Assembly (NCBI GenBank): GCA_025449975.1
Contig: JANWIG010000036.1
Coordinates: 1 to 32,966, forward strand
DNA length: 32,966 nucleotides
Reading direction: 5' to 3'
DNA from: Thermoactinomycetaceae bacterium
Lineage (GTDB): Bacteria > Bacillota > Bacilli > Thermoactinomycetales > Thermoactinomycetaceae
Part shown: positions 1 to 26,507 of the stretch, piece by piece
Layout: every line of letters starts with the position of its first letter
How positions within the stretch are numbered: position 1 is the first letter of the stretch
Notes under the pieces: generated by a model
Told to the model about the DNA's origin: nothing
Seen by the model: the letters and a program-made list of their open reading frames with translations, nothing else
The model's database searches: none
Program-made: the position numbers and the translations under genes

Positions 1-689
1 ATCCGCATGGCAGGTATAACCACATTTTTTGCATCTGAACTGGATGCCATTTCGATTCGCTTTTTCACGATGATTACATTTACAGGTTTGACTGGTGTAG
101 TCTGGTTTAACTAATTCAAAGCGGATCTGGATCCCCACCGTTTCAGCCTTGTATTTAATAAACTCTTTCAATGAATAGAAAGACCATGAATGAAGATTTC
201 TACCCGCTTCCTTCGTGGATTTAGCACGATTTCGAATATCCGTCAAACTTCCATTCGAATGATATCAACACCGTTGGTCCATGCGAAATCTACGATTTGA
301 TGGCTGATTTTATGGTTCTGATCTTTCATCCAACGAGACTCTTTATCTTTCGATTTTTTGATGGCGGAAAGTTTTTTCAGTTTACCTAGCTTTCTTCGTC
401 TAGCCGCAAAACGTCTACGAACAAAAGCAACTTGGTTTCCTTTGAAGAATAATGATTTTACACTGGCGACAGCGATGGATCTCAGTCCTAGATCCACTCC
501 CATGACTTTCGTTTCTTTTCGTTGTTCTACTTCAAAAGTGATGGGAATAGCGATATACCATTTTCCTTTTTTACCGTATAGCTCGCTGGCACCCTGTTTG
601 AATGGTTGCTCTAAGCAATCCCATGAAGGGATTACCGAGCAACGCCGTCTTTCATCCCACGATTCAAACCGTGGGATGAAAGACGGCAT
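1..689 (-). pseudogene. tnpB: Decayed IS200/IS605-family TnpB (OrfB), frameshifted, 5'-truncated and cut by the window edge
   Basis: TnpB is an RNA-guided RuvC-like nuclease carried by IS200/IS605 elements. Reading the minus strand, the frame contains the RuvC-I motif GVDLGLRS (Asp codon 492-494) and then the RuvC-II block ending in MEV and a TGA stop (243-245). A one-base shift right after the RuvC-II Glu (249-251) restores an open frame to position 1. That frame encodes the expected continuation: TDIRNRAKST, a zinc-finger-like CKC...CKKC, and CHAD, whose last Asp (1-3) is the RuvC-III position. The simplest reading is a one-base deletion (GAAGATTTG to GAAGTTTG). The usual N-terminal 100 or more residues are missing. 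The open frame upstream of about position 610 only runs through a hairpin repeat and is probably not TnpB sequence. The gene is inactive as it stands. A sequencing error could explain the shift but not the missing N-terminus. Confidence 0.85.
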
Positions 690-698
690 TTTTTGTAA
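602..698. repeat. Hairpin repeat, copy 1 (probable end of the IS200/IS605-type element)
   Basis: An 18-bp perfect inverted repeat (644-661 and 670-687) with an 8-nt loop lies inside a 97-nt unit whose second copy is at 26411-26507. A minor stem (AATCCC 617-622, GGGATT 628-633) sits beside it. The unit abuts the tnpB remnant on the side where the left end of such an element would be, which fits the subterminal hairpins of IS200/IS605 ends. Read on the plus strand the stem is followed by a T run, so it could also stop transcription coming from upstream. Origin as a transposon end is an inference; the repeat itself is directly visible. Confidence 0.75.
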
Positions 699-26263: not shown

Positions 26264-26410
26264 TCGGATCCTCCCATGGCTGAAGCCGATGGAATTTTTG
26301 AGCGGTTGGTGTCCGCAGTCCGTCACCCCATCCGATGCGATGAAATCTCCCCACATAGATGGAACGCTGATTGGTTTTGAGCATCATTCGTATGTTATTT
26401 CATAGAGAAT
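26264..26410 (-). mobile_element. Probable right-end (omega-RNA-like) remnant of an IS200/IS605-type element
   Basis: Read on the minus strand this stretch ends in a small hairpin (CCATGGCTGAAGCCGATGG in plus orientation, 26274-26292) followed by a GGGAGGATCC-like end. Such a GGC-TTCAG-CC...GGGAGG ending is, from memory, common at right ends of TnpB-carrying elements, where the omega-RNA lies. It is joined directly to the hairpin repeat at 26411-26507, so both ends of an element may be present with tnpB deleted. A 69-codon minus frame across it (26178-26387) is not a convincing gene. Identification rests on recognition and context. Confidence 0.5.
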
Positions 26411-26507
26411 ATTGTTATTCTTAGCAATTCTATAAAGGGATTACCGAGTAATGCCACCATTCATACCACAATTTCAACTGCGGGATGAAAGGTGGCATTT
26501 TCTGTAA
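26411..26507. repeat. Hairpin repeat, copy 2
   Basis: Aligns without gaps to 602-698; over the last 85 nt about 68 positions agree by eye. The hairpin arms are 26453-26470 and 26479-26496 with an 8-nt loop; 15 of 18 pairs are kept. Three pairs differ from copy 1 by changes on both sides (26456:26493, 26457:26492, 26470:26479), so pairing is preserved. Same orientation as copy 1, but no tnpB follows. Confidence 0.75.

What the first reader, a model, noticed from the sequence alone, without database searches (positions are those of the whole stretch)
602..698. Covarying hairpin repeat, second copy 25.8 kb away
The 97-nt units at 602-698 and 26411-26507 align without gaps, about 80% identical over 85 nt by eye. 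Differences at 647/684, 648/683 and 661/670 are matched by changes on the other arm in copy 2, so the pairing is conserved despite sequence drift. That is the mark of a selected structure, not a random duplication. It may be the subterminal hairpin of a transposon family or a small non-autonomous element spread through the genome.
Basis: partly seen in the sequence, partly recalled or inferred. Interest (0 to 1): 0.65.

Follow-up and report, generated by a model that had tools for sequence, protein, structure and literature searches.

The report
Self-corrected IS608-like transposon end hairpins
The two hairpin repeats are the left ends of small single-strand 'jumping gene' elements whose DNA hairpin was rewritten, probably in one copying slip, into a near-perfect mirror repeat, which erased the short guide the element should need to jump.

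Summary
In detail: the 97-nt units at 602-698 and 26411-26507 align without gaps (76 of 97 identical) with three double changes, though three other pairs are broken in copy 2. They are left ends (LE) of IS608-like IS200/IS605 elements, read on the minus strand: copy 1 belongs to a tnpB remnant, copy 2 to a decayed remnant without genes. In relatives the unit lies just upstream of a Y1 TnpA gene. The signals match IS608 (TTAC, guide AAAG at +16 to +19, GAAT, TCAA), and one precise empty site was found.

The tight pairing is not the conserved state. Most family copies keep the guide side as an unpaired bubble. In both window copies that arm was rewritten to match the other arm, losing AAAG. Of 125 complete copies, 0 of 4 bubble pairs are closed in 106, 1 in 8, 2-3 in none, 4 in 11. 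On a tree with the arm masked, 9 rewritten copies need 9 changes. This is the signature of quasipalindrome template-switch correction, recurrent and predicted to immobilise the element; immobilisation is untested.

The parts
1..694 (-). Copy 1: remnant of an IS608-like element, left end at 694, running off the window (contig) start
   Evidence: LE plus tnpB fragment on the minus strand; the window is a whole contig, G000:C36
695..698 (-). TTAC left cleavage/target site (CL) of copy 1, on the host side
   Evidence: TTAC in 109 of 128 family copies with these four letters aligned and in 12 of 12 rewritten copies; IS608 CL = TTAC (PMC5934647 passages)
644..687 (-). Hairpin 2 of copy 1: outer helix, closed bubble and inner hairpin, an 18-pair stem
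676..679 (-). Position of the TnpA left guide (GL, +16 to +19): reads TCAT where 92 of 105 copies without the rewritten arm read AAAG
   Evidence: IS608 GL = AAAG
656..675 (-). Inner hairpin (IPL equivalent), +20 to +39
   Evidence: inner helix 92.7% of cells paired in 51 copies
605..643 (-). Hairpin 1 of copy 1, second LE hairpin with an internal loop
1..596 (-). tnpB fragment of copy 1 (right limit approximate): N-terminal part missing, frame broken near 243-246
   Evidence: PF01385 (4.6e-9) and PF07282 (2.8e-15) in two frames
26504..26507 (-). TTAC (CL) of copy 2
26411..26503 (-). Copy 2 left end: hairpin 2 (26453-26496) with the guide lost (TCAT) and partly decayed, and hairpin 1
26270..26303 (-). 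Decayed right-end hairpin of copy 2 (counterpart of GAAT-hairpin-GTGTCAA)
   Evidence: read from the sequence against complete right ends; inference by eye

Best explanation
Both units are left ends of IS608-like (IS200/IS605) elements. A working left end has a short inner hairpin flanked by the TnpA guide AAAG on its 5' side and by AT on its 3' side. These flanks do not pair with each other, yet they are enclosed by an outer helix that does pair, so the end is a quasipalindrome with a functional mismatch bubble. Shown: the bubble is open in most copies, and in a minority (including both window copies) the guide-side arm has been replaced, without intermediates, by the complement of the other arm. 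Inferred: during replication the nascent strand switched template inside the hairpin (quasipalindrome correction). Also inferred, from IS608: because the guide must pair with TTAC for TnpA to act on the left end, the rewritten element cannot excise and stays as a fossil. The apparent covariation of the two window copies is then partly family covariation in the outer helix and partly this homogenisation, not selection for a perfect stem.
For: Family identity: Y1 TnpA (PF01797, 1.3e-39) and TnpB (PF07282, PF01385) in one complete element; TnpA matches solved ISHp608 TnpA chains at 8.2e-27 and 8.9e-27; cut and guide sites as in IS608; one gapless empty site of 299 nt, TTAC present once. Bubble open. 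One-step rewriting: of 125 complete copies 106 have 0 of 4 bubble pairs closed, 8 have 1, none 2 or 3, 11 have 4; independent closure at the observed single rate would give about 1e-5 such copies. In Geobacillus jurassicus an open and a rewritten copy (L238, L268) differ in the first 140 nt at exactly the 4 guide-arm positions (12 differences in 452 aligned). Independent origins: 9 changes for the 9 rewritten copies placed on a tree of 119 rows with the arm masked, single clade rejected, p-AU 0.0016. A further outer mismatch is closed in 10 of 11 rewritten against 65 of 114 other copies (Fisher p 0.049). Pattern counts with up to 2 mismatches in 42 genomes, not started from a rewritten copy alone: 85 open, 9 guide-side rewritten, 4 other-side rewritten. 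An exact pattern that admits every intermediate, over a collection of 84,980 species genomes: 39 open, 6 guide-side, 4 other-side, 2 one-step intermediates, n = 51.
Against: No transposition assay: that the rewritten end is dead rests on IS608 biochemistry. The 4 other-side rewritten copies in Shimazuella kribbensis keep AAAG, and each resembles a different open sister, so they neither show nor exclude continued movement. L014, a rewritten copy cut off at a contig end, resembles copy 1 and could be a rewritten copy that moved. Only 4 of the 11 complete rewritten copies of the main set have a demonstrably open sister of 96% or more in the same genome; L035 has one at 94%; for copy 1 the nearest (L007, 96.5% on 57 columns) lacks the arm, so its state is unknown; the other 5 have none above 81%. 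13 of 105 copies without the rewritten arm also lack an exact AAAG. The query, from which the 143 copies came, was the rewritten copy 1, so proportions in that set favour rewritten copies. The tree rests on short sequences and a quick search.
Confidence: 0.74

Rival explanations
1. The tight hairpins are selected: the rewritten left ends were kept because they work as strong terminators or insulators facing out of the element, for example upstream of rpsJ.
For: Copy 1 gives an 18-pair stem followed by a T run on the + strand, scored as terminator-like; as DNA, five rewritten ends fold at -19.5 to -24.8 kcal/mol against -4.5 to -12.4 for four open ends (copy 1 confirmed).
Against: Copy 2 does not score as a terminator, folds at -15.4 and has three broken pairs. 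Regions upstream of rpsJ from 22 relatives and near cwlD from 13 relatives gave no left-end match beyond one weak hit (L195, E 0.056), so there is no sign of long retention. Rewritten copies are the minority in every count made.
Confidence: 0.12
2. Ordinary compensatory evolution of a selected structure, including the bubble pairs.
For: Outer helix and hairpin 1 covary beyond the shuffles.
Against: The four bubble pairs are almost never paired in 51 open copies, and no copy has two or three of four closed.
Confidence: 0.05
3. Homogenisation by recombination between different copies (gene conversion from a rewritten donor) rather than within one hairpin.
For: Genomes hold many similar copies.
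Against: Rewritten arms mirror the outer arm of their own copy, which differs between copies (GCCATC/GATGGC, GCCGCC/GGCGGC, GTCGTC/GACGAC); 7 of the 8 genomes and both Geobacillus genomes show a single rewritten copy at up to 2 mismatches (the own genome has two more that this pattern misses, L011 and L014).
Confidence: 0.06
4. Library or assembly artefact: foldback molecules at quasipalindromes made false perfect hairpins in draft genomes.
For: Two rewritten copies lie at or near contig ends (L014, L031).
Against: 14 guide-side rewritten copies are seen in 11 genomes; six of them are in named records with different accession prefixes, and one lies inside a 2.1 Mb contig (G014:C6). No reads were examined.
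Confidence: 0.05

Closest known systems
IS608 (ISHp608) of Helicobacter pylori, IS200/IS605 family
   Same: Y1 TnpA, TnpB, TTAC and TCAA cut sites, AAAG guide at +16 to +19, GAAT guide beside the right hairpin, insertion 3' of TTAC
   Different: A second left-end hairpin and an outer helix that encloses the guide, so that the end is a long quasipalindrome; whether IS608 has a comparable outer helix was not compared here; circular intermediate and activity not tested
Quasipalindrome-associated template-switch mutation in bacteria and yeast (PMC7202029, abstract and introduction)
   Same: Clustered changes copied from the other arm, giving a more perfect inverted repeat
   Different: Here the repeat is a transposon end and the changes hit the transposase guide
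Template switching that creates and maintains RNA hairpins (PMC8794818, abstract and opening text)
   Same: Multi-base apparent compensatory change by a single event
   Different: There it makes or preserves a stem; here it closes a bubble whose openness is the conserved state
Non-autonomous IS605 derivatives (PATE/MITE type; meaning of the names recalled; PMC3119063 seen in the listing only)
   Same: About 390-400 bp with both ends and no transposase gene
   Different: Here they also keep an omegaRNA-like stretch and a promoter-like signal (by eye)

Membership tests
IS200/IS605, IS608-like | Y1 (HUH) transposase TnpA beside the end | tested here: met
   PF01797 1.3e-39 and ISHp608 TnpA chains for the element of L065; TnpA frames downstream of the unit in L031, L037, L048, L053, L057 (by eye). 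The window's own genome has no PF01797 match
IS200/IS605, IS608-like | TnpB with OrfB/TNB domains (optional) | tested here: met
   for L065 and for the window fragment
IS200/IS605, IS608-like | CL TTAC and GL AAAG 5' of the left hairpin | tested here: met
   Family: TTAC 109 of 128, AAAG 92 of 105 copies without the rewritten arm
IS200/IS605, IS608-like (active left end) | The window copies themselves carry GL AAAG | tested here: not met
   Both read TCAT: members by descent, predicted inactive
IS200/IS605, IS608-like | CR TCAA and GR GAAT at the right hairpin | tested here: met
   Seen in complete right ends of relatives (not counted over all copies, and some end in GTCTCAA or GAGTCAA). Copy 1's right end is off the contig, copy 2's is decayed
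IS200/IS605, IS608-like | Insertion 3' of TTAC without target duplication | tested here: met
   One gapless empty site, G033:C30:33828-34126, for the element at G030:C1:257037; one site of four searched
IS200/IS605, IS608-like | Single-strand excision with circular intermediate | not testable with these tools
   needs a transposition assay
Quasipalindrome template-switch correction | Several changes at once, each matching the other arm | tested here: met
Quasipalindrome template-switch correction | Event observed from a known parent during replication | tested here: inconclusive
   The sister pair in G. jurassicus shows only the guide-arm changes in the first 140 nt, but the parent and the replication step are inferred

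The most novel reading that the evidence does not exclude
IS608-like elements of Bacillales carry their transposase guide in the mismatch bubble of a quasipalindrome, so ordinary replication template switching repeatedly rewrites it and switches elements off in one step, in either direction: the guide is lost if the 5' arm is rewritten, and the conserved A just 3' of the inner hairpin is lost if the other arm is rewritten. This would be a built-in, host-independent decay route specific to hairpin-reading single-strand transposons.
Probability: 0.55. Interest if true: 0.6.

Novelty: new variant of a known kind. Interest (0 to 1): 0.45.

Why it matters
It warns that tight, covarying hairpins in repeats can come from a mutational process rather than from selection, with a natural control in the same family (open sisters). 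It also makes a testable claim about how single-strand transposons die: the bases the transposase must read sit where template switching is most likely to overwrite them.

Tried and rejected
I first read the four other-side rewritten copies of Shimazuella kribbensis as one amplified family that kept its guide and stayed mobile (note). The alignment of longer stretches shows each closest to a different open sister, so I dropped that argument.

Empty sites for the window's own two insertions could not be mapped: regions upstream of rpsJ and near cwlD in relatives carry no solid left-end match, and by eye the spacers are too diverged to align. Of 13 sites whose flanks were joined I searched 4: one gave a gapless empty site in G033 (and a one-sided match in G026); one gave diverged matches with gaps in G033 and G030; the other two gave only partial matches outside their own genome.

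Rfam found nothing at the elements: in the window only a partial 16S rRNA at its end, and 0 matches at E 0.01 in 5 loci. No tRNA in the window. Asked for up to 400 genomes of the order, searches returned 42. The rewritten pattern (up to 2 mismatches) misses three rewritten copies known from the alignment (L011, L014, L123).

Rows dropped: the four palindrome self-matches; 18 of 143 copies from the bubble count because a needed column was a gap; 24 of 143 from the tree for short length; rewritten and short or near-identical copies from the 58 rows, and 7 more of those 58 (L046, L048, L093, L094, L128, L134, L136) before the alignment, as divergent or with an altered hairpin 1.

Literature: nine searches ran. 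None of the rows listed joined template switching with IS200/IS605 ends, but three of these searches hit far more papers than they listed (100, 135 and 293 papers), and only the held open library was searched. PMC5934647 was read in passages, PMC8794818 and PMC7202029 as abstract and opening text, all others as listings. omegaRNA work on Geobacillus IS605 elements and on standalone omegaRNAs is recalled, not read.

Full report
What is there. The window is one whole contig, number 36 of 70, of a 2.52 Mb draft genome. The two genomes that the tools place in its genus carry contigs equal in length to records of Thermoflavimicrobium dichotomicum and T. daqui, so the window comes from a close relative in Thermoactinomycetaceae; its own name was not shown.

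The family. From the stretches fetched I collected 143 non-overlapping left ends in 24 genomes and aligned them. Read on the minus strand of the window, 109 of the 128 copies with those columns filled have TTAC just before the first element base. In L031, L037, L048, L053 and L057 the unit is followed by a TnpA frame. The element of L065, about 1.76 kb, holds TnpA (PF01797, 1.3e-39) and TnpB (PF07282, PF01385) and ends in GAAT-hairpin-GTGTCAA. Its TnpA matches ISHp608 TnpA structures at 8.2e-27 and 8.9e-27. Smaller elements of about 390-400 bp keep both ends and no transposase gene.

Match to IS608. PMC5934647 (passages) gives CL TTAC, GL AAAG, CR TCAA, GR GAAT, with guides just 5' of each hairpin, pairs A+16:T-3 and A+17:T-4, and an A and a T at +42/+43, in the 3' extension of the left hairpin, that are essential for a stable complex. 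Here AAAG lies at exactly +16 to +19 in 92 of 105 copies without the rewritten arm, and AT directly follows the inner hairpin in 95 of 105; that this AT is the counterpart of +42/+43 is inference. One empty site confirms the boundaries: the joined flanks of the element at G030:C1:257037 match G033:C30:33828-34126 without a gap over 299 nt, 91% identical, TTAC present once. Only 4 of 13 joined sites were searched and only one gave this clear result.

The window copies. Copy 1 starts at 694 on the minus strand and joins a tnpB fragment whose N-terminal part is missing and whose frame is broken near 243-246. Copy 2 has its left end at 26503 and a decayed right hairpin near 26270-26303 (by eye). 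Regions upstream of rpsJ from 22 relatives and near cwlD from 13 relatives show no left-end match except one weak hit at E 0.056 in L195, so both insertions look lineage-specific. The own genome has no Y1 TnpA match and five TnpB matches: the window fragment, one with stops, two at contig starts, and one with an open frame of 279 aa that I did not examine further. The draft may hide an intact element in its gaps.

The conserved structure is an open bubble. On 51 non-redundant copies without the rewritten arm the outer helix, inner hairpin and hairpin 1 pair in 90.7% of cells. Cells paired, cells changed on both sides, pair types and covariation score exceed all 500 shuffles, and pairs changed on both sides are reached by 3 of 500; slid controls fall to 37-48% of cells paired. 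Relatedness alone can exceed such shuffles, as the tool warns, so the slid controls matter too. Forcing the bubble closed shows the four pairs beside the guide unpaired in 51/51, 50/51, 51/51 and 47/50 cells. These 51 rows exclude rewritten copies by choice, and 7 of the 58 rows selected were left out.

Rewritten copies. In 12 of 143 copies, in 9 genomes, the guide-side arm reads TTCAT, the complement of the other arm (11 complete, plus the truncated L014). Among 125 complete copies the number of the four bubble pairs closed is 0 in 106, 1 in 8, 2 or 3 in none, 4 in 11. At the single rate seen, about 1e-5 copies with all four would be expected. The further outer mismatch is closed in 10 of 11 rewritten and 65 of 114 other copies (Fisher p 0.049). 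The search that gave these copies used the rewritten copy 1 as query and is biased towards it. Separate patterns with up to 2 mismatches in 42 genomes give 85 open matches in 18 genomes, 9 guide-side rewritten loci in 8 genomes (10 rows, one locus on both strands) and 4 other-side rewritten loci in 1 genome. An exact pattern that admits every intermediate, run over the collection of 84,980 species genomes, gives 51 matches: 39 open, 6 guide-side, 4 other-side, 2 single-step; it reached Geobacillus, Paenibacillus and Brevibacillus. In 9 further genomes there are 22 matches, 20 open and 2 guide-side rewritten; the two Geobacillus genomes with a rewritten copy have 7 and 5 open ones. In all, 14 guide-side rewritten copies in 11 genomes.

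Independence. The 9 rewritten copies complete enough for a tree need 9 changes on a tree of 119 rows with the arm masked, and one clade is rejected at p-AU 0.0016 (short sequences, quick tree). Four of the 11 complete rewritten copies have a demonstrably open sister in the same genome at 96% or more outside the arm (L030, L031, L032, L055) and L035 one at 94%. For copy 1 the nearest, L007, lacks the arm, so its state is unknown. The other five have none above 81%. In G. jurassicus L238 and L268 differ in the first 140 nt only at the four guide-arm positions. In Shimazuella kribbensis the four other-side rewritten copies each resemble a different open sister, so three or four events are likely. 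Hairpin 1 shows the same kind of change in L009 and L048 by eye.

Mechanism. Clustered changes matching the other arm of the same hairpin are what quasipalindrome template switching produces (PMC7202029; PMC8794818). That replication made them here is inferred. Loss of AAAG should stop TnpA from acting at TTAC, and rewriting the other arm replaces the A just 3' of the inner hairpin; both are predictions from IS608 and were not tested. As DNA, five rewritten ends fold at -19.5 to -24.8 kcal/mol against -4.5 to -12.4 for four open ends, and copy 2, partly decayed, at -15.4. Copy 1 also scores as a terminator on the + strand, copy 2 does not.

Verdict. The unusual point is that the tight, covarying pairing in these two copies is best read as the mark of a recurrent mutational event that erases the transposase guide, not of selection for the stem.

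Noticed in passing
L071:1590-2000, L075:1578-1975, right part of the element in L065 (relatives): Elements of about 390-400 bp without a transposase gene keep an omegaRNA-like stretch, a TTGCTT-17-TATAAT promoter-like signal after hairpin 1, and the right end: candidate guide RNA genes that could serve a TnpB made elsewhere. One stem of this stretch differs between gene-bearing and gene-less elements on both sides, by eye; Rfam has no match.
   Followed up: partly
window 1 (contig start); L014, L028, L029: The draft assembly breaks at these repeats: the window contig starts inside tnpB, two other contigs start with a tnpB end and one contig ends inside a left-end hairpin.
   Followed up: partly
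L048 and L076 (G010:C1:53096-53208): Hairpin 1 was extended into a long palindrome beyond its usual limits, as if template switching had copied sequence that was not palindromic before.
   Followed up: partly
L175-L178 (Shimazuella kribbensis): The rewritten copies found in this genome have the 3' arm rewritten, while those found elsewhere have the guide-side arm rewritten; reason unknown.
   Followed up: no
L122 (G026) and L145 (G030): The same left end with the same 20-nt flank in two species of one genus: probably an insertion shared by descent.
   Followed up: no
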